A stretch of DNA of 64,000 nucleotides from an uncultured Candidatus Peregrinibacteria bacterium (GTDB taxonomy: Bacteria > Patescibacteriota > Gracilibacteria > Peribacterales > Peribacteraceae). The position numbers and the translations under genes were made by a program. The notes below the pieces were generated by a model. The model had not been told where the DNA came from. It searched no databases and saw only the letters and a list, made by a program, of their open reading frames with translations. This document shows, in pieces, positions 7,549 through 15,820 of this stretch; positions within the stretch are counted from its first letter, which is position 1; every line of letters starts with the position of its first letter. The DNA is taken from positions 372,001 to 436,000 of the forward strand of contig CAIKAD010000001.1 in the NCBI GenBank assembly GCA_903825315.1. Reading direction: 5' to 3'.

Positions 7549-7842
7549 ATGACCACCCCCAAGATTCTTCTCGGTATAGCAGACATTGCCGTTCCCCTTG
7601 GATTCATCTTGTCGATCGTAGGATTAGCATTGAAAGGAAAGTGGAAATGGACAGCGGCAGCGGGTGTAATTTTGTTTCTGGTGAGCGTGATTATTGTGCT
7701 GCTGTGTCCCATTTGCATCAGTTGTACGGGGACGGGCTCTAACGGATCCGGGTGGGAAGGGACGTGCTGTGCTCGGTCGTGGAAACCCACCAAGAAGGTG
7801 CCGTGGTGGGATCTGGTGACCGAACCATGGCTTTGGAAATAA
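7549..7842 (+). CDS. unknown small membrane protein
   Basis: A 97-residue protein with two hydrophobic segments, about residues 6-27 (LLGIADIAVPLGFILSIVGL) and 36-56 (AAGVILFLVSVIIVLLCPIC). These form a hairpin with a short basic loop (KGKWKW). The C-terminal 40 residues are Cys- and Trp-rich (CPICISC, CC, several W), possibly metal-binding or disulfide-bonded. No family recognised. A weak TACGAT -10 lies six bases before the ATG. Confidence 0.6.
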   Translation: MTTPKILLGIADIAVPLGFILSIVGLALKGKWKWTAAAGVILFLVSVIIVLLCPICISCTGTGSNGSGWEGTCCARSWKPTKKVPWWDLVTEPWLWK

Positions 7843-8002: not shown

Positions 8003-9352
8003 TTAGTCCTCGTCCACTTCCGCTTCTCCCATGTGGTCTTGGAGGACGTAGGTGTCCAGGTTCTTTGTGCCAAGGAGTTTAGTGACTTGCGGAATAGCCT
8101 GCTCATATTTGATTTGCTTCTGCTTGCCCGCCTTCATGTCGCGCAGAATGACGGTCCCTTCCTTCACTTCCATTTTTCCTAGGAGCAGCGTGTAGCGCGC
8201 CTCAAACTTATCCGCGAGTCTCATCTGGCTTTTGAGGCTGGCTTCGCCAAGCGCCCCGATGGTGTGCACGCCGAGCTGACGAAGTTCGGAGATGAGGGAG
8301 AGGCATTTCTTCTTAGCTTCCGGTCCCAGCTGCGCCACGAACACGTCCACCTGGTCCTTATTGGGGACAGTGACGCCTGCCTCTTTCATGTGCCAGATCA
8401 TGCGCTCCACGCCTCCTGCAAATCCCACACCGGGCGTTGGCTTACCGCCAAGGAGCTCGATCAGCCCGTCGTACCGTCCTCCGCCGCCCACGGCGTTCTG
8501 TGCGCCGGTGGACTGGTCCCAGAACTCAAACACCGTCTGGCAGTAGTAGTCCAGACCGCGCACGAGCCGGGGATTGAGAACATACTTGATGCCGAGTTCC
8601 TCCAGGTACTCCAGAAGCGTCTCGTGGAACTGCCTGCTCTCATCGCCGATGAACTGGTCGAGCGTGGGGGCGGTCTTCAGGAGGATCTGTGTGTCCTCGT
8701 TCTTGGAGTCCAGCACGCGCATGGGGTTGGTTTGCAGGCGCCTCCGGTCCTCCTCGGGAAGCTGGTGCTCTTTGCCAATGAAGAAGTCCTTCACTGCTTC
8801 GGCGTACGCTTTGCGGTTATCCGCAGTGCCGATGTTGTTCACTTGGAGCGTGAGGCGATCCAAAATCTTCACATCCTGCAGGATATTGGTGACCACATGG
8901 ATGAGCTGTGCGTCCAGGCTCGGATCCTTGAGCCCGATGATCTCCAGGTCGAACTGGTGGAACTGGCGGTAGCGGCCCTTTTGCGGACGGTCGTGACGGA
9001 AACACTGGCCGATGGCATACAGTTCTACGGGCTGCGGGAGCTGCTGCATGCCATTCTCGATGTAGGAGCGGCAAATGCCTGCGGTGAACTCCGGTCGCAG
9101 CGCGAACTCTGCTTCTTCCCCCTCCTTTTTGCTGCCTCTGACGGTGAAGAGCTCCTTTTCCACAATATCCGTATGTTCGCCGATGCCGCGCTCAAACACG
9201 CCGCGGTACTCGAACATTGGCGTATCGATGCGCTTGTATCCTGCCTGGCGGCAGCGGTGGCGCACCGCTTTTTTGATGTACGTCATGTACATGTGGTCTT
9301 CCGGCAGCACATCGTGCGTGCCTTTCGGAGTTCTAAACATGGGTTCTGCCAT
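8003..9352 (-). CDS. hisS: histidyl-tRNA synthetase
   Basis: A class II aminoacyl-tRNA synthetase of 449 residues that charges tRNA-His. Motif 1 region: FRTPKGTHDVLPEDH. Motif 2: FRHDRPQKGRYRQFHQFDLE. The His-specific signature RGLDYYCQTVFEFWD and motif 3 GGGRYDGLIELLGGKPTPGV with VERMIW are present. The C-terminal anticodon-binding domain follows. I start at the ATG at 9350-9352 because the homologous N-terminus begins there and a GAGG Shine-Dalgarno lies upstream; a longer in-frame start exists 60 bases up. The cognate tRNA-His gene is about 6 kb away at 15244. Confidence 0.95.
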   Translation of the reverse strand: MAEPMFRTPKGTHDVLPEDHMYMTYIKKAVRHRCRQAGYKRIDTPMFEYRGVFERGIGEHTDIVEKELFTVRGSKKEGEEAEFALRPEFTAGICRSYIENGMQQLPQPVELYAIGQCFRHDRPQKGRYRQFHQFDLEIIGLKDPSLDAQLIHVVTNILQDVKILDRLTLQVNNIGTADNRKAYAEAVKDFFIGKEHQLPEEDRRRLQTNPMRVLDSKNEDTQILLKTAPTLDQFIGDESRQFHETLLEYLEELGIKYVLNPRLVRGLDYYCQTVFEFWDQSTGAQNAVGGGGRYDGLIELLGGKPTPGVGFAGGVERMIWHMKEAGVTVPNKDQVDVFVAQLGPEAKKKCLSLISELRQLGVHTIGALGEASLKSQMRLADKFEARYTLLLGKMEVKEGTVILRDMKAGKQKQIKYEQAIPQVTKLLGTKNLDTYVLQDHMGEAEVDED

Positions 9353-9487
9353 AGAAACCTCATAGGGAGGCTCAAGGGAACCTAGCAGAGCAAAGGGAAT
9401 CTGACAAGACACTGATTACGGTATTTTGACGAGCGGATGCCGAGGAGAAGGTTGTAATGTTCAGTTTTTTGTACCGTCATACTGTCA

Positions 9488-10438
9488 ATGCACGCTTCTA
9501 TGAGATACGCGGTTATCGGTTTTGCAGGGCTTGGCATTGCTGCGGCGGTTCCGTTCCTTCTACAGACATGGAATAACGCACGCACTACACCCGCTTCCGC
9601 CACCCTCATCACTGCCGCTCTTGCCGATGCCAGCACGCGGAAGCAATCTGCTTTTGTGCAATGGGGGGCGTACGCCGGTGATACTCCATCGGACAGTACA
9701 AATTTTGAGGCTGCTGTTGGCAAGAAGATGGATTTGGTGGCTGTATTTATGGCAGACAGTGATCCTTTTCCGTCCCAGTTTGGTCCTACGGTACGCGATG
9801 AAGGGAAGACGCTCATAGTGTTCTGGGAACCCACCGGAAAGTCCCTGGATGACATAAATGCCAAGAAATCAGATGCCGACTTACGGAAATTTGCCACTGC
9901 GGCAAAGTCATACGGTGGTCCGGTGATTTTTGCGCCTTTCCATGAGATGAACGGCAATTGGTCATCTTGGGGAGGCACAGTGGGCAAGAACACTCCCAGA
10001 AAATTCATTACTGCATGGCGTCATGTGCATGCGTTTGTGGACAAGGTGCCCAATGTGCGGGTCGGGTGGGTCGTGAACAATCGATCGATCCCCCTACGGC
10101 GCGGGAACTCGATCGAGCTCTACTACCCGGGTGATGCCTACGTGGATTATGTGGGTGTGGATGGGTTTAACGAGGGTTCCACGTGGGAAACGTTTGATCA
10201 GACGTTCAGCGCGGCGCTTACGGCAATTCGGGTCTATCACAAGCCTGTGTACATTTTCTCCATGGCCAGCGCGGAGGGGCCGCAGAAAGCGGCATGGATT
10301 ACCGATGCGCTGGCTGTTCAAATTCCCAGCCATCCGGAGATCGTCGGATGGGTATGGTTTAATCAGGATAAAGAGAAAGACTGGCGTGTGTGGTCGGAAA
10401 AAGCGTCCCTCAGGGCGTTCCAGAAAGCAATACAATGA
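9488..10438 (+). CDS. GH26-like glycoside hydrolase, exported or membrane-anchored; nucleophile probably missing
   Basis: A 316-residue protein with an N-terminal hydrophobic anchor or signal (VIGFAGLGIAAAVPFLL, residues 9-25) and a GH26 (beta-mannanase-like) barrel. The acid/base motif is intact: VIFAPFHEMNGNWSSWGG with Glu153. The second catalytic region reads KPVYIFSMASAEGPQKAAW; in the GH26 proteins I recall, the strand ends I-A/G-E with the nucleophile Glu, but here the aligned position is Ser258. Glu263 is five residues on. It may therefore be inactive, sugar-binding only, or use another residue. Context with a deacetylase and a glycosyltransferase suggests exopolysaccharide handling. 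Confidence 0.75.
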   Translation: MHASMRYAVIGFAGLGIAAAVPFLLQTWNNARTTPASATLITAALADASTRKQSAFVQWGAYAGDTPSDSTNFEAAVGKKMDLVAVFMADSDPFPSQFGPTVRDEGKTLIVFWEPTGKSLDDINAKKSDADLRKFATAAKSYGGPVIFAPFHEMNGNWSSWGGTVGKNTPRKFITAWRHVHAFVDKVPNVRVGWVVNNRSIPLRRGNSIELYYPGDAYVDYVGVDGFNEGSTWETFDQTFSAALTAIRVYHKPVYIFSMASAEGPQKAAWITDALAVQIPSHPEIVGWVWFNQDKEKDWRVWSEKASLRAFQKAIQ

Positions 10439-10628
10439 ATGGAGTGCCATGTACAGATCAGTACTATCACTCCTATGTACGTAGATAGCGCTGATCAGCC
10501 CCTCACGATAATTCATCGTATAACACTACGCATTCAATCAAAAAAGATTACAGTACTCCCGATCTTTGGCTCCATCGGTGTTCGTGGAGAGTCTTAAGAT
10601 ATCAATCCTACATGTCAGGAGTATGCGT

Positions 10629-11000
10629 ATGAAGAGAATACTTGCGCGCGTTGTCTGTTACTTTACGGAACACAGGTTCGAATACAGCTCTGATCAACAG
10701 AGACGAACCTGTAACAGATGTGCCTTCTCGCAGCGTACATGTGCTGTGTGCGAGGGACAGGGGAGGCGCTTGGATCTTCCGATGATTCTATGTTCAGACT
10801 GTGATGGGAATGGGAGAACGTACTCGAAATGCCGACACGATGCGGCGACGATCTTCTGTCCGGATTGTGAAAGTACAGATGGGAAATCTGAAGGGATCTG
10901 TCCGGTCTGCATAGGGTCTGGAATGGTTCGTCCGCGTTGCGTAGCTTGCAAAGGGCAAGGATGGATTCGTTTGGGGGCAACTCAGCATACTGGAGAATAG
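10629..11000 (+). CDS. free-standing DnaJ-type zinc-finger protein
   Basis: A 123-residue protein made almost entirely of Cys motifs. Four copies of CxxCxGxG occur (CAVCEGQG, CSDCDGNG, CPVCIGSG, CVACKGQG), plus CNRC and CPDC pairs. In DnaJ/Hsp40, four such repeats bind two zinc ions, but here there is no J domain or C-terminal substrate domain. It could be a thiol/zinc chaperone accessory. I start at ATG 10629 because AGGAG lies seven bases upstream; an ATG six bases earlier is too close to it. A strong terminator follows. Confidence 0.75.
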   Translation: MKRILARVVCYFTEHRFEYSSDQQRRTCNRCAFSQRTCAVCEGQGRRLDLPMILCSDCDGNGRTYSKCRHDAATIFCPDCESTDGKSEGICPVCIGSGMVRPRCVACKGQGWIRLGATQHTGE

Positions 11001-11045
11001 TATGCGTATAGTTCCGATCGTCCGCGAATGCCTTGCCAAAGATGT

Positions 11046-11076
11046 GCCCAGAGTGGAGTACTCTGGGCTTTTCCTT
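11046..11076 (+). terminator. intrinsic terminator after the zinc-finger gene
   Basis: GCCCAGAGT (11046-11054) and ACTCTGGGC (11060-11068) form a perfect 9-bp stem with a 5-base loop, followed by TTTTCCTT. Confidence 0.9.
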
Positions 11077-11113
11077 GAGCGTTCCAATTCCGTATCTCTA
11101 GGCATCGTTCGGA

Positions 11114-13900
11114 TTACGGCATCATCTGCAACCCCTGATGGACGGTGATCACCGGCGTGCTTTGCGCTTTGAGGTAGTTCACGGTGTCCTGCAGCGTGGC
11201 CGGCGACGTGTCGTACTGGCCGGGGTTATTGATCACCTGGTGGATGACAAGGATGAGCCACGTTTTGTCGCGCGTTGCCGTATCGATCCACTGCCTGATT
11301 TGCGCCGGTGTAGTGGTGTTGAGGACGTTCTGGACTTTGAGGGTGAATGTATTGTCCGTCCGCTGGTTATAGCCCTCGTCGACGGTTCGCGCTCCGGCGA
11401 AGTTTGCGTTCTTTGTGAGCGTAATGATCGCATCATTGTATTCGCCGTAGGTATAGGCAAGCGAGTCCACGGGCGAGAACCCATGGTCGAGGAGGTCTTT
11501 GCGCGATCCCTGGATTTCATCCCGGGCCTTGGCCGTGGTGAGCTGCGTGAGGTGCGGATGCGTCTGTGTATGAGCATCAATCTCATGTCCGGCTTGTTGG
11601 AGTGCGAGGACTTGTGCGGTGCTTGCGTAGGACGAGGGATCGTTGAGGTCGCCCGCGGCCGGGTTAAGCATCTCGTTGGTGATAATGTAGAAGCTCGCTT
11701 TGAGGCTGGATTGGTCGAGGATGGGACGCACTGTGGTGTAGTGGGAAATCCAGCCATCATCGAAGGTAAGGCTTACATATCCTTTGTCGAATGAGTCCGG
11801 TCCAGGCCCCCCGCTGAAGAGTGTGAGAGAGAAATTATCCACGCTCAACGTTCCCGCAGCGGCAAGGAGATGGAATACCGTGAGCGATGCGGCGTTCGCC
11901 GGCGCCGTGAAGGTAGTGCTGAACTGGCGGAAGTCCGTGCTGGGGCCAACTTGGCCGATTTCCACGTACTGCTGTGCAGTATCCTGCATCGTGTACTGCA
12001 CGACGAGGGAGCTGGGCGCGGTGCTCTTGTACCAGTCCGAGAAACTATATTGCTGTCCGGGAGTGACGGGAACATTGTCAAAGTACCACTTGGCATCCCC
12101 ATTTGTGTACTGCGTGATGGTCAGTGCCGCACCGCGGCTCCCATCCTCCGCTTCTCCCGGATAGGTGTATTGCACCGTGTTCGTTCCCCATCCGCCACGA
12201 TGCCAGTGCGCCGGGTCGCCGTTCCCTCCGTCCGTTTCCACAGAGGGGTTGGGAATGAGGTTGCCGCCTGGATCTGGCGATGATGAGTTTGAGCTGCTGG
12301 AACTTGAGGATGCTCCGGTTTCCGTGTTGTCCTGTGCGCCGGTGCAGCCGGGGTCAGCCGGATAATCCACGAGACCGTTCCCGTCGTTATCTATCCCGTC
12401 CTGGCACTGTGATTTGGGATTCGCTTCGTTAGTGCTCAGGGCACTCGTACAACTGAAGTCAGCAGGGAAGTCCGTGGCGCCGTCATTATCGTCATCGATG
12501 CCGTTGGAGCATTGTGGCAGGATGGAAGAACTGCTGGAGGAACTGGAATTGGATGAAGAGCTGGTTCCTGCTGCCAGGGCGGTACAGAAACCGAGCGTGA
12601 GGTCCGCGTTCTGGTTTCCGAGGTACGTCACCTGGTCGTCCGGCGCCCCGAGCGCGCGAGACGCGTATCCCAGGTTGGTGATGTAGAGGTTGGAGAGTCC
12701 CGTTCCGAGCTGGACGTTGGAGACGCGGTCGGCTGTGGCCGAGGTGCCATTGGAAAAATGGAGTGTGATGGCATCGATGTTGTTCCCCGCCCCCTGATCG
12801 GGAACGTTTTCGTTACGGTAATCCAGGATGTTGATGTAGCTTCCCTGGGGATCAGCGTGCCCACCGGCATCGCTGATGAATATGGTGTATTGCTCATGTG
12901 CACTGGTGGAGAACGTCGCCGACATGGTCTGGAGTTGGCCGAGAGTGAAGGAGTATTCGGTGAAGTCGGTAGTGAGCTCCCGTATTGTCGCGGAGGTAAG
13001 GCCCGCTTGTTCCAGTGACCGCACGGGGTACTGACATGCCCCATCCCCTCCGGAGACGGGAACGGAACTGGACGAAGAGTTGTTGGAACTGGAACTCATG
13101 GAAGCGCCCATTTCGGTGCTGTCCTGAGCGCTTGTGCATCCAGGATCAGCAGGAAAATCCACGAGGCCGTTCCCGTCGTTATCCATACCGTCTTGGCACT
13201 GTGCTTTAGGATTAGCCTCGTCGGTATCCAATACAGTCGTACAACTGAAATCGTACGGAAAATCGGTGGCACCGTCACGGTCGTCATCGATGCCGTTGGA
13301 GCATTGTGGATTCTCTGACGGGGAAAGCGAACTGATGTTCGATGATGCCGAGGAGGAACCGTCGGAGAAGGGATCTGCACAGGTGATGGAAGCGACCCAT
13401 GTACTACCGTACTTGGGGAGCGCTGCTACAGTGTTAAAGTTGGAAGAAGAGTAGCGCGTCAGCTTGTTGTTACGGGGTGTGTGGAAGTTACATTTCCCGT
13501 TGGGATACAGAGAGCTGCGTTCCTCATCCTGGCAAGTGCTCGATACGTAGGTTCTGTATCCCAGGGTGTCACAGATTTTGAAGAGCGTAGCAGTATCCTG
13601 TGTCCCGTTGTCGTTCCATCTCAATCCTTTTCCGGTACCCTCTCTTGAGCGGAGGAAGGGATTTGTCGGAACAGTCAGCGGAAGTCCCTGTGTCCGTATG
13701 GCGTCCGCTACGGCTTGAAGTACGAGCTGGGGGCGGTTGCGGCCATCGCTCCCCTTCCCAAATGTCATGGTGGTTGTGGTGGCGCTCACAGGCGTTGCGA
13801 GAAGTGTTTGTGAGGTAGAGGAAGGAATGAGCGGGATAAACATGGCTGCCAGGGTGATGAAGAGCATCAGAGCTCTCATCCGGTCGTAGAAGGAACGCAT
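11114..13900 (-). CDS. large secreted polysaccharide deacetylase with Asp-rich repeats
   Basis: A 928-residue exported protein. Signal peptide at about residues 8-30. Two copies of a Cys/Asp-rich module (about 199-263 and 463-527: QCSNGIDDD.DGATDFP then QCQDG.DNDGNGLVD.PADPGC) resemble calcium-binding thrombospondin-type repeats. Ser-rich linkers flank them. A beta-rich domain (about 546-695) looks like a carbohydrate-binding module. The C-terminus (about 707-928) is a NodB deacetylase: TFDDG at 712-716 gives the catalytic and metal Asp, and HTQTH at 777-781 the two metal His. It would remove acetyl groups from an amino-sugar polymer at the surface. The adjacent glycosyltransferase reads the same way, 55 bases upstream. 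Confidence 0.88.
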   Translation of the reverse strand: MRSFYDRMRALMLFITLAAMFIPLIPSSTSQTLLATPVSATTTTMTFGKGSDGRNRPQLVLQAVADAIRTQGLPLTVPTNPFLRSREGTGKGLRWNDNGTQDTATLFKICDTLGYRTYVSSTCQDEERSSLYPNGKCNFHTPRNNKLTRYSSSNFNTVAALPKYGSTWVASITCADPFSDGSSSASSNISSLSPSENPQCSNGIDDDRDGATDFPYDFSCTTVLDTDEANPKAQCQDGMDNDGNGLVDFPADPGCTSAQDSTEMGASMSSSSNNSSSSSVPVSGGDGACQYPVRSLEQAGLTSATIRELTTDFTEYSFTLGQLQTMSATFSTSAHEQYTIFISDAGGHADPQGSYINILDYRNENVPDQGAGNNIDAITLHFSNGTSATADRVSNVQLGTGLSNLYITNLGYASRALGAPDDQVTYLGNQNADLTLGFCTALAAGTSSSSNSSSSSSSSILPQCSNGIDDDNDGATDFPADFSCTSALSTNEANPKSQCQDGIDNDGNGLVDYPADPGCTGAQDNTETGASSSSSSSNSSSPDPGGNLIPNPSVETDGGNGDPAHWHRGGWGTNTVQYTYPGEAEDGSRGAALTITQYTNGDAKWYFDNVPVTPGQQYSFSDWYKSTAPSSLVVQYTMQDTAQQYVEIGQVGPSTDFRQFSTTFTAPANAASLTVFHLLAAAGTLSVDNFSLTLFSGGPGPDSFDKGYVSLTFDDGWISHYTTVRPILDQSSLKASFYIITNEMLNPAAGDLNDPSSYASTAQVLALQQAGHEIDAHTQTHPHLTQLTTAKARDEIQGSRKDLLDHGFSPVDSLAYTYGEYNDAIITLTKNANFAGARTVDEGYNQRTDNTFTLKVQNVLNTTTPAQIRQWIDTATRDKTWLILVIHQVINNPGQYDTSPATLQDTVNYLKAQSTPVITVHQGLQMMP

Positions 13901-13954
13901 AACGGGAGAAGGGAGGTGAGCGATTATTGTTGATGGAGCACGTGATCCTGTTTA

Positions 13955-14977
13955 TCAGGCCAGTGTCAGACGCTTGGGGGAAATCCAGACGTTTTGTCGT
14001 TTATGGAAAATAAATTCCTTCACAAACTGTTCCAGGAAGACGTAGGCGTTAACGTAGAGGAGAAACAGGTAGGGAAAGGGAACCAGTAGCATATCCAGCC
14101 GCTTCTCACGGATGGCGGCGAAGACGCTGAGTACGGATGCGGTGGAGAAGATGAGGAGTAAGATGTTTCCTGCGAGGCGGATATTGAGGATCGGTATGAG
14201 GAATGCGAGCACGGAATAGACGACGCCTTCGATGTACATGAGTGAAAGTTCCAACGCCTGCGGGGGAAACGATGCAATGGAGTAGTGCTTGCGAAGGTTC
14301 TGCCACCCGCCACCGAACCAGCGCTGCATCTGGAGAAAATAGCACCGGATGGTTGCGGGATCCTGGGTGTAGACGATAGCGTTACGGTCGAAGAGGATTT
14401 TGAAGCCGTTCTTGTGCAGCTTGTAGGTGAAGTCGAGATCCTCGGTGATTGTGTCATGGTCAAAGGAGAGGTACTCGCGGAACACGTGCGTGCGGAATGC
14501 GCCCGCGGCGCCGGGAATGACAAACATGAATCCCAGGTAGCTCTGTGCGAGCTTGTGGAGGTTTTGCCCGATGGAGTACTCAAAGGCACGGTGCCGGGTA
14601 AGCCAGTTGTACTTGAGGCTCTTCACGTATCCGCCGACGGCAGCGACCGTGGGATTCTCAAAATCCTTTTCGATGCGTTCGATGAAGTCTGGAGCAAGGA
14701 GGGTGTCTCCGTCTGAGGTCACAAAAATGTCCCCCGTGACAAACTGCAGGCCGAATTCCTGTGCGTGGCTCTTGTTCCCCAAATTCCGTGGTGTGCGAAC
14801 TACGGTGATTTTTCCCGCGAACTCCGGTTCACGGAGGATCAGCGGTGTGGCATCCGTGCTGGAGTCATCTACCACAATGATCTCGTCCGCAGGTCGGGTT
14901 TGATTCAGCCAGGAGCGGGCGCTCTGCCGGATAGCCTGTGCCTCGTTATGACAGGGGATAAAGAGTGTGATGCGCAT
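13955..14977 (-). CDS. processive family 2 glycosyltransferase, membrane-bound
   Basis: A 340-residue GT2 enzyme. The GT-A fold starts LFIPCHNEAQAIRQSARSWL, with EIIVVDDSSTDAT, the DxD-like VTSDGDTLL, the acceptor/base motif ITEDLDF and the processivity motif QMQRW (residues near 217-221). Two or three transmembrane segments follow (GVVYSVLAFLIPILNIRLAG, ILLLIFSTASVLSVFAAI, LVPFPYLFLLYVNAYVFLEQ). This layout matches PgaC/hyaluronan/chitin-synthase-like enzymes that polymerise and export beta-linked sugars. The downstream deacetylase supports a poly-N-acetylglucosamine-like product, which is inference. Confidence 0.88.
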   Translation of the reverse strand: MRITLFIPCHNEAQAIRQSARSWLNQTRPADEIIVVDDSSTDATPLILREPEFAGKITVVRTPRNLGNKSHAQEFGLQFVTGDIFVTSDGDTLLAPDFIERIEKDFENPTVAAVGGYVKSLKYNWLTRHRAFEYSIGQNLHKLAQSYLGFMFVIPGAAGAFRTHVFREYLSFDHDTITEDLDFTYKLHKNGFKILFDRNAIVYTQDPATIRCYFLQMQRWFGGGWQNLRKHYSIASFPPQALELSLMYIEGVVYSVLAFLIPILNIRLAGNILLLIFSTASVLSVFAAIREKRLDMLLVPFPYLFLLYVNAYVFLEQFVKEFIFHKRQNVWISPKRLTLA

Positions 14978-15089
14978 GCCAACGGCGTTAATCCTCTTTG
15001 AAGACGCCGTTTTAGCCTCTTTCTTACAACGAGTTCTCCGGCAAGGAGATATTCACACGGAAGAATTATTCTGTACAATAATCGAGCTT

Positions 15090-15120
15090 GTGGCGGGCGT
15101 AGCTTCCACCTTCGCCCCAT
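15090..15120 (+). pseudogene. remnant of a tRNA-His gene
   Basis: GTGGCGGGCGTAGCT at 15090-15104 is identical to the 5' end of the tRNA-His region (15242-15256), and TCGCCCCAT at 15112-15120 is identical to its 3' end (15314-15322). The D-arm end, anticodon arm and T-arm are missing between them. It looks like an internally deleted copy, leaving only acceptor-stem halves that can still pair. Confidence 0.55.
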
Positions 15121-15189
15121 GCTTAAATCCTCCGCGTCATTCCCTTTGTTGAAGCAGAGGACAGGGAGGGCTACGGTGGGCAGGCAGTT

Positions 15190-15217
15190 GGTTCCGCCCT
15201 TCGGGCGGATTTGGAAC
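15190..15217. repeat. GC-rich hairpin upstream of tRNA-His
   Basis: TCCGCCC-TTC-GGGCGGA forms a 7-bp stem with a three-base loop, inside a GGTTCC/GGAACC pair. No T-tract follows. It lies 27 bases before the tRNA and may be a processing or transcription signal. Confidence 0.4.
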
Positions 15218-15238
15218 CATTGTGGTAGCATTTCTTCA

Positions 15239-15334
<96 letters not shown>

Positions 15335-15374: not shown

Positions 15375-15812
15375 TTACTTCGAAATAATGCCACTCGTTT
15401 GAGATCTATGTTTACCTTTTGGGTGGATACGCCAATCAAAGTATTGCTTCTGAGGGAACTTTTGGTGAGCGATCTGTTCAAATCCCTGTTTAATCGTTGC
15501 TCCCAAGTGCCCTTTGGATATTCCGTAGAGCGAAATGAGCGGGTATCCATTGTGTTCAATCAACATTCGCTTGTTCCAAGCGTTCTTCCTGTAATTCCTT
15601 TCGTTCATTCCGAAATATTCAATGTAAATATTATAATCATCCAAGAAGAAATCAGGACGCCAACGATAGCCAACAAGGCTTATGGGAGGCTCGTACGTGA
15701 AACGAATGCCTTGATCTTCCAGAAAGTTTGCAATCTCCAGCTCGCCCGGACTGCGAACAGGTAGTCCGTTCTTTGAACAGAACTTCCTCTGACGAGAATA
15801 TCTTTTGGGCAT
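15375..15812 (-). CDS. PD-(D/E)XK nuclease-like protein
   Basis: A 145-residue protein with a Vsr/DUF559-like nuclease core: Glu in SPGELEIANFLEDQGI, then YRWRPDFFLDDYNIYIEYFG, that is P-D-F with the metal Asp and a following E-Y-F-G strand, and later KRMLIEHNGYPLISLY. Such folds occur in repair (Vsr), restriction and helicase-linked nucleases; the exact role is unknown. It starts at the ATG 15810-15812; the GTG just before it falls between the -10 box and the start. It is in an AT-richer patch beside tRNA-His, a common insertion neighbourhood, so it may be acquired. Confidence 0.72.
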   Translation of the reverse strand: MPKRYSRQRKFCSKNGLPVRSPGELEIANFLEDQGIRFTYEPPISLVGYRWRPDFFLDDYNIYIEYFGMNERNYRKNAWNKRMLIEHNGYPLISLYGISKGHLGATIKQGFEQIAHQKFPQKQYFDWRIHPKGKHRSQTSGIISK

Positions 15813-15820
15813 CACATTAT

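What the first reader, a model, noticed from the sequence alone, without database searches (positions are those of the whole stretch)
9488..14977. Compact exopolysaccharide module resembling PgaB/PgaC
A processive GT2 with TED and QxxRW motifs and a secreted NodB deacetylase lie on the same strand, with a GH26-like protein just beyond. This is the logic of poly-N-acetylglucosamine synthesis and deacetylation. In an episymbiont it could serve attachment to the host. The deacetylase is far larger than PgaB and carries calcium-repeat-like modules that may hold it at the surface.
Basis: partly seen in the sequence, partly recalled or inferred. Interest (0 to 1): 0.55.

Follow-up and report, generated by a model that had tools for sequence, protein, structure and literature searches.

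The report
CPR exopolysaccharide module with altered hydrolase
A tiny-genome bacterium carries a compact gene set, found in scattered relatives, that probably makes and partly deacetylates a secreted sugar polymer, and its sugar-cutting partner protein has lost one of its two key catalytic residues.

Summary
13955-14977 (-) encodes a family-2 glycosyltransferase with DxD, TED and QxxRW motifs. 54 bases downstream starts a 928-aa secreted CE4/NodB deacetylase with a CBM_4_9 domain; a GH26-like protein faces them. They are not chance neighbours: in 379 genomes of the phylum, 14 of 49 listed GT2 relatives (window included) lie within 5 kb of a listed relative of the deacetylase, 4 of 49 within 5 kb of a GH26. 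The module sits in a variable slot between hisS and tRNA-His, empty in one family member.

The poly-GlcNAc analogy is reasonable, but membership is not met: the GT2 scores 127 bits against a PgaC/IcaA cut-off of 422, trees exclude it from the PgaC clade, and it lacks PgaC's N-terminal helices. It groups with polymerases rather than lipid glycosyltransferases. The deacetylase's size comes from lineage-specific acidic disulfide repeats.

New here: the GH26 proteins of this module clade (4 of 4) have Ser where 21 of 21 other GH26 aligned have the nucleophile Glu; the acid/base Glu stays. They are pseudoenzymes or, more boldly, use the substrate's own N-acetyl group. Polymer identity and host attachment are untested.

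The parts
13955..14977 (-). GT2, 340 aa, processive type: DxD (SDGD at residue 88), TED (178), QMQRW (216), hydrophobic stretches for about three C-terminal membrane helices, none at the N-terminus
11114..13900 (-). Secreted CE4/NodB deacetylase, 928 aa: signal-like N-terminal segment, lineage-specific N-terminal half, CBM_4_9, NodB domain
13115..13309 (-). First acidic double-disulfide repeat pair (about residues 198-262), EF-hand-like loops at residues 205 and 240
12323..12517 (-). Second acidic double-disulfide repeat pair (about residues 462-526), EF-hand-like loops at residues 469 and 504
11879..12259 (-). CBM_4_9 carbohydrate-binding domain (residues 548-674)
11126..11791 (-). NodB/CE4 catalytic domain (about residues 704-925): TFDDG at 712, HTQTH at 777, LAYTYG at 814, VIHQV at 885
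9488..10438 (+). GH26-like protein, 316 aa, N-terminal hydrophobic segment, closest to the lichenase CtLic26A; acid/base Glu153 kept, nucleophile position Ser258
10259..10261 (+). Codon TCC (Ser258) at the position of the GH26 catalytic nucleophile Glu
9944..9946 (+). Codon GAG (Glu153), conserved acid/base of GH26
9413..15244 (.). Variable slot between hisS (8003-9412 -) and tRNA-His (15245-15321 +) that holds the module; hisS and tRNA-His are adjacent without cargo in G007

Best explanation
A compact, horizontally moving synthase-dependent exopolysaccharide module. The membrane GT2 polymerises an activated sugar, most likely UDP-GlcNAc, at the inner face of the membrane and extrudes the chain. 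The secreted CE4 protein, held on the chain by its CBM and at the cell surface by its acidic disulfide repeats, removes acetyl groups, which would make the polymer cationic. The GH26-like partner binds the same polymer at the surface; with no nucleophile carboxylate it probably acts as a binder or chaperone rather than an ordinary retaining hydrolase. Shown: the domains, the motifs, the conserved linkage, the nucleophile replacement, the insertion slot. Inferred: processivity, the sugar, deacetylation of this particular polymer, surface retention, the role of GH26, horizontal gain.
For: GT2, CE4 and GH26 recur together: Staskawiczbacteria L084 (GT2, CBM-NodB, two GH26), Falkowbacteria L085 (GH26, GT2, CBM-NodB), G120 (GH26, GT2, CBM-NodB). 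14 of 49 GT2 places lie within 5 kb of a CBM/NodB place (about 0.5 expected) and 4 of 49 within 5 kb of GH26 (about 0.07 expected), window included. Control: 1 of 147 listed GT2 hits in close relatives lies within 5 kb of a listed NodB hit. The GT2 groups with polymerases in the tree, away from ArnC/YfdH. Orthologues G138 and G100 have a neighbour with DUF2334 over its gathering score and a Polysacc_deac_1 match (over that family's score in G100, just under it in G138), and G138 also a GH18 with DGIDLDFE, which points to an amino-sugar polymer. Best NCBIfam model of the GT2 is PgaC_IcaA. The fused GT2-CE4 protein MatB is required for PNAG in Streptomyces (PMC5972031, passages seen). MurA is over its cut-off in this genome, consistent with a UDP-GlcNAc supply.
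Against: The sugar is not fixed by sequence: the GH26 is closest to a family 26 lichenase, and a Deinococcus plasmid has GT2+GH26 near a GH16, which would fit a glucan. GlmU was found only below its cut-off (57 bits against 367). One of seven GT2 orthologues (G274) showed no CE4 or GH26 by phmmer over the ORFs of a 20-kb stretch, nor in five neighbours scanned with Pfam; another (L086) showed none in the 10 kb visible before its contig ends, three neighbours scanned with Pfam. 35 of 49 GT2 places have no listed CE4 place within 5 kb. The structure model of the GT2 failed (pLDDT 46.6), so the channel is untested.
Confidence: 0.6

Rival explanations
1. A beta-glucan (cellulose-like or mixed-linkage) synthase module. 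The GH26 lineage is the editing hydrolase of a glucan, and the CE4 protein acts on acetyl groups of that glucan or on another glycan.
For: GH26 is nearest to the lichenase CtLic26A by sequence and by fold; Deinococcus taeanensis carries GT2+GH26 near a GH16; other CPR GT2-GH26 pairs (G120, G322, G360) keep the Glu nucleophile.
Against: Best NCBIfam model is PgaC_IcaA (126.8 bits), with CelA far behind (25.2 bits); BcsA and the pSymB synthase sit apart in the trees; a GH18 lies beside the G138 orthologue where others have GH26; the nucleophile needed for ordinary glucan hydrolysis is lost here.
Confidence: 0.18
2. The GT2 is a single-transfer enzyme that modifies a lipid carrier or surface protein, and the deacetylase acts on the cell's own or a host's peptidoglycan; the genes share only a surface theme.
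For: A clade of the window group with ArnC, YfdH and two other GT2 of this genome is not rejected (p-AU 0.125); no N-terminal membrane helices; best PDB hit by sequence is a protein named only 'Glycosyl transferase, family 2'.
Against: TED and QxxRW at the spacing found in PgaC and BcsA, absent in ArnC, YfdH and the two other GT2 of this genome; a branch of 99/97 sets ArnC, YfdH and one of those two apart; a clade of the window group with ArnC/YfdH is rejected, p-AU 0.016; specific linkage to CBM-bearing CE4 and to GH26. My odds for this rival fell from 0.14 to 0.11 when one search replaced a faulty tree.
Confidence: 0.11
3. The GH26-like and NodB proteins are secreted enzymes aimed at a host cell's envelope, with the GT2 an unrelated neighbour.
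For: Both carry an N-terminal hydrophobic segment; an episymbiotic life style is usual for CPR (recalled).
Against: Linkage of GT2 to the CE4 across the phylum; the GH26 lacks its nucleophile, odd for a digestive enzyme.
Confidence: 0.08

Closest known systems
MatAB of Streptomyces (PNAG)
   Same: MatB joins a GT2 and a CE4 domain and is needed for PNAG in Streptomyces (PMC5972031, passages seen)
   Different: There the two domains are fused; here they are separate genes with a GH26-like partner. A bifunctional deacetylase-GT2 of Kocuria (L160) falls outside the clade of the window GT2; MatB itself was not in the tree
pgaABCD / icaADBC
   Same: GT2 + CE4 logic; PgaB also has a glycoside-hydrolase domain, GH153, whose probable catalytic acid is D474 and which lacks an equivalent of the second catalytic residue of dispersin B (PMC5933820, passages seen)
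   Different: GT2 below the PgaC/IcaA cut-off and outside the PgaC clade; no N-terminal helix pair; no PgaA or PgaD seen among nine window ORFs; GH26-like domain instead of GH153, as a separate gene
CtLic26A (Clostridium thermocellum GH26 lichenase)
   Same: Whole-domain sequence match (E 5e-43) and fold match (TM-score by target length up to 0.86); acid/base Glu kept
   Different: Nucleophile Glu replaced by Ser; sits in a biosynthetic gene set
wps-1 cluster of Actinoplanes missouriensis
   Same: An exopolysaccharide gene set that includes a GT2 and a GH26 (PMC13390465, passages seen)
   Different: Predicted Wzx/Wzy-dependent with more genes; not synthase-dependent

Membership tests
PgaC/IcaA poly-beta-1,6-GlcNAc synthase (TIGR03937) | score above the curated cut-off (422.3 bits) | tested here: not met
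   126.8 bits; 127.3 bits and no match over the cut-off in the whole genome
PgaC/IcaA poly-beta-1,6-GlcNAc synthase (TIGR03937) | falls in the PgaC clade | tested here: not met
   own 7-row clade 100/100; the two PgaC rows elsewhere; clade of the seven with them rejected, p-AU 1e-7; IcaA itself was not available
PgaC/IcaA poly-beta-1,6-GlcNAc synthase (TIGR03937) | two N-terminal plus three C-terminal membrane helices, as in E. coli PgaC | tested here: not met
   hydropathy: only the C-terminal block
Processive GT2 polymerases in general | DxD, TED and QxxRW motifs followed by membrane helices | tested here: met
Processive GT2 polymerases in general | groups with polymerases rather than lipid glycosyltransferases | tested here: met
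   ArnC, YfdH and own_L003c set apart by a 99/97 branch; clade with ArnC/YfdH rejected, p-AU 0.016; a clade with those plus two own-genome GT2 not rejected, p 0.125
Processive GT2 polymerases in general | makes a polymer | not testable with these tools
   needs an enzyme assay
pga/ica operon | accessory subunits PgaA, PgaD, IcaD, IcaC | tested here: inconclusive
   none seen among nine window ORFs scanned with Pfam, but no specific search was run, in the window or the rest of the genome; a 97-aa two-helix ORF at 7549-7842 was not tested further
CE4 / NodB deacetylase | NodB domain with TFDDG and HxxxH metal motifs | tested here: met
   Polysacc_deac_1 81.1 bits; TFDDG 712, HTQTH 777; motif meaning recalled
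PgaB (TIGR03938) | score above the curated cut-off (321.9 bits) | tested here: not met
   19.8 bits
GH26 | fold and sequence family | tested here: met
   46.4 bits against 20.2; fold match to CtLic26A
GH26 | two catalytic glutamates | tested here: not met
   acid/base Glu153 present; nucleophile position is Ser258; 4 of 25 rows aligned have Ser, 21 of 25 Glu

The most novel reading that the evidence does not exclude
This branch of GH26 has dropped its own nucleophile because its substrate supplies one: on a GlcNAc polymer the 2-acetamido group could attack the anomeric carbon, so that only the acid/base Glu is needed. It would be the split, GH26-fold counterpart of the hydrolase domain of PgaB and, to my knowledge, a first case of substrate-assisted catalysis in a family known for glucan, mannan and xylan hydrolysis. 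A GH18, a family that works that way (recalled), beside the orthologous GT2 in G138 is what this would predict.
Probability: 0.12. Interest if true: 0.75.

Novelty: new variant of a known kind. Interest (0 to 1): 0.5.

Why it matters
CPR bacteria have small genomes and are thought to live on other cells, and how they hold on is poorly known. A three-gene, apparently mobile module for a modified surface polysaccharide gives a direct, testable candidate. The conserved loss of a catalytic residue in a hydrolase tied to polymer synthesis also gives a clean test of whether a pseudoenzyme or a changed mechanism is used in exopolysaccharide export.

Tried and rejected
Structure of the GT2: the AlphaFold2 model from a four-row alignment had pLDDT 46.6 and was not used; a fold test against lipid glycosyltransferases was therefore not possible. 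Close relatives: in 96 genomes searched (the window's own and 95 others) the best GT2 match outside the own genome was E 1.6e-37, a longer protein of G088 that by eye also holds a NodB-like stretch, and no GH26 match at E <= 0.001 appeared except the window's own. The two-helix 97-aa ORF at 7549-7842 was considered as a PgaD-like subunit and set aside: it has no significant family match and lies beyond hisS. Base composition shows no clear jump at the module. GH26 on plasmids: 59 records matched; of five further neighbourhoods opened, one (the haloarchaeon Salinirubellus) has a GT2 directly before the GH26, but that GT2 gave no phmmer match to the window GT2.

A mistake mended: two rows called own_L002 and own_L003 were read from the wrong strand of their loci, and one search gave motifs for the same faulty rows. 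One search repeats the tree, the tests and the motif check with the right strand, and the report uses it in their place. The faulty tests gave p 3e-7 (PgaC) and 0.229 (ArnC/YfdH); the mended ones give 1e-7 and 0.016, and one search gives 0.125 for a clade with ArnC, YfdH and both own-genome rows. Deep joins of long rows stay uncertain (warning).

Literature: I saw search listings with starts of abstracts and passages of four papers, no paper as a whole. Of these searches, 56, 57, 60, 61, 82, 83, 95 and 96 listed no title on a GT2-CE4-GH26 set in CPR; several lists were cut (57: 15 of 16, 61: 12 of 156, 82: 10 of 12, 95: 8 of 84), and the library lacks most subscription journals and all bioRxiv preprints.

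Rows dropped before a count: the second half of the G360 GH26 (gene split by a stop) was left out of the tree and the count; the window's own rows were left out; own_L004 was left out of the later trees; the adjacency counts use only rows printed, of which 9 and 13 say that more matches exist. The control differs from the test in thresholds (weaker GT2 hits, a whole-protein NodB query) and in sample (close relatives); 62 of its 147 GT2 hits lie in genomes with a listed NodB hit.
Full report
What is there. The window is part of a 1.29-Mb genome in five contigs; the orthologues of its GT2 in named records are CPR bacteria (three of four hits; the fourth is a 46-residue match in a Gemmatimonadetes contig). 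Between hisS (8003-9412 -) and tRNA-His (15245-15321 +) lie a GH26-like gene (9488-10438 +), a Cys-rich ORF with a weak DnaJ zinc-finger match (10566-11000 +), a deacetylase gene (11114-13900 -) and a GT2 gene (13955-14977 -). The GT2 precedes the deacetylase by 54 bases on the same strand.

The GT2. It is 340 aa with DxD, TED and QxxRW in the order and spacing of PgaC and BcsA; ArnC, YfdH and two other GT2 of this genome lack TED and QxxRW. Hydropathy shows only a C-terminal block of about three helices, where PgaC has two more at the N-terminus. Its best NCBIfam model is PgaC_IcaA at 126.8 bits, far below the cut-off of 422. A clade of the seven with the two PgaC rows is rejected (p-AU 1e-7), and so is one with ArnC and YfdH (p 0.016). 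One with ArnC, YfdH and two own-genome GT2 is not (p 0.125). ArnC, YfdH and the own-genome L003 protein stand apart on a 99/97 branch.

The deacetylase. The catalytic NodB domain is ordinary (81.1 bits, TFDDG, HTQTH). In front of it stand a CBM_4_9 domain and about 540 residues of other sequence: a domain near residues 44-152 and two pairs of acidic double-disulfide repeats, with another region between them. These pieces recur in very long open frames of the same family (up to 5,662 aa), so they look like surface modules of this family, fused here to a CBM-NodB unit. The repeats hold four EF-hand-like loops, so calcium binding is plausible but untested. The homologues in Staskawiczbacteria and Falkowbacteria are 463 and 548 aa (the second reaches the end of its contig).

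The GH26-like protein. It matches the lichenase CtLic26A over the whole domain by sequence (E 5e-43) and by fold (model pLDDT 71, TM-score by target length up to 0.86). At the position of the catalytic nucleophile it has Ser258. That this is the catalytic position is supported by the chain of the Michaelis-complex entry 2cip, which carries Gln there; the residue roles themselves are recalled. In an alignment of 25 GH26 rows the acid/base Glu is present in 25 of 25; the nucleophile position is Glu in 21 and Ser in 4: the window, both Staskawiczbacteria copies and the Falkowbacteria protein, which form one clade (100/99). The simplest account is one change, kept in three lineages, each time near a GT2 of the same clade.

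Linkage. In 379 genomes of the phylum (own included) the GT2 query hits 43 genomes at E <= 1e-20 (49 places), the GH26 query 16 genomes at E <= 1e-6, and the CBM-NodB query 65 genomes at E <= 1e-12. 14 of 49 GT2 places lie within 5 kb of a CBM/NodB place and 4 of 49 within 5 kb of a GH26 place, window included; random placement in 1-Mb genomes predicts about 0.5 and 0.07. As a control, 1 of 147 listed GT2 hits in close relatives lies within 5 kb of a listed NodB hit; against 13 of 48 (window left out) Fisher's p is 3.5e-8. Rows are not independent and thresholds differ between the two samples, so that p is a guide only. Of the seven GT2 orthologues, three (window, L084, L085) have NodB and GH26; two (G138, G100) have a DUF2334 protein that also matches Polysacc_deac_1 (25.7 bits in G100, over the gathering score of 23.1; 21.1 bits in G138, below it), in G138 with a GH18. 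G274 showed none by phmmer in a 20-kb stretch and in five Pfam-scanned neighbours; L086 none in the 10 kb visible before its contig ends, three neighbours Pfam-scanned.

Mobility. hisS was sought in five relatives and found in four (not in G001). In the family member G007 hisS and tRNA-His are adjacent with no cargo, and the PKD and pilin genes follow. In the same genus, G002 has an L-fucose isomerase and an ORF of unknown kind in that slot, and G003 an ATPase, a marginal GNAT match, an IS1595 transposase and an ORF without match; in G030 no tRNA-His was found in the stretch, so the slot cannot be judged. The GT2 and GH26 have no close counterpart in the genus. This fits gain by horizontal transfer.

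How it most likely works. The GT2 makes and extrudes a polymer, the CE4 protein partly deacetylates it outside, and the GH26-like protein handles it. An amino-sugar polymer is favoured by the CE4 partner, the PgaC_IcaA model, the GH18 in G138 and the MatB precedent (PMC5972031, passages). A glucan is the main rival because of the GH26 ancestry and the Deinococcus GT2+GH26+GH16 arrangement. In PgaB the hydrolase domain also has a probable catalytic acid but no equivalent of dispersin B's second catalytic residue (PMC5933820, passages); that parallel is what makes the substrate-assisted reading worth testing. A survey of synthase-dependent operons contrasts pga and ica systems; the terms for CPR did not occur in its main text (PMC7112194, passages).

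Verdict. It is a distinct CPR variant of synthase-dependent exopolysaccharide systems, with a nucleophile-less GH26 partner as its most unusual part.

Noticed in passing
9413-15244: The interval between hisS and tRNA-His is a variable cargo slot: empty in G007, different genes in G002 and G003, the polysaccharide module here.
   Followed up: partly
L044 (G040), L036 (G030), L035 (G014) and others: Very long open frames (up to 5,662 aa) across the family carry the same acidic double-disulfide repeats as the deacetylase; others share its N-terminal domain.
   Followed up: partly
G000:C2:2-625 (-): A second protein of this genome, cut by a contig end, is 53% identical to residues 12-244 of the deacetylase.
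   Followed up: no
10566-11000 (+): A 144-aa Cys-rich ORF with a weak DnaJ zinc-finger match (19 bits, below cut-off) lies between the GH26 and the deacetylase.
   Followed up: no
7549-7842 (+): A 97-aa ORF with two predicted membrane helices and no significant family match.
   Followed up: no
15375-15815 (-): A 146-aa ORF without Pfam match that reads like a small restriction-type nuclease (impression from the letters, not tested).
   Followed up: no
L161 (Deinococcus taeanensis plasmid): A GT2 gene overlapping a GH26 gene, with a GH16 gene nearby: the GT2-GH26 pair exists outside CPR.
   Followed up: partly
L005 (G088), 28-2595: One 855-aa protein joins a GT2 (matched) to a NodB-like and a peptidoglycan-binding-like stretch, both read by eye from the letters and not scanned.
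   Followed up: no
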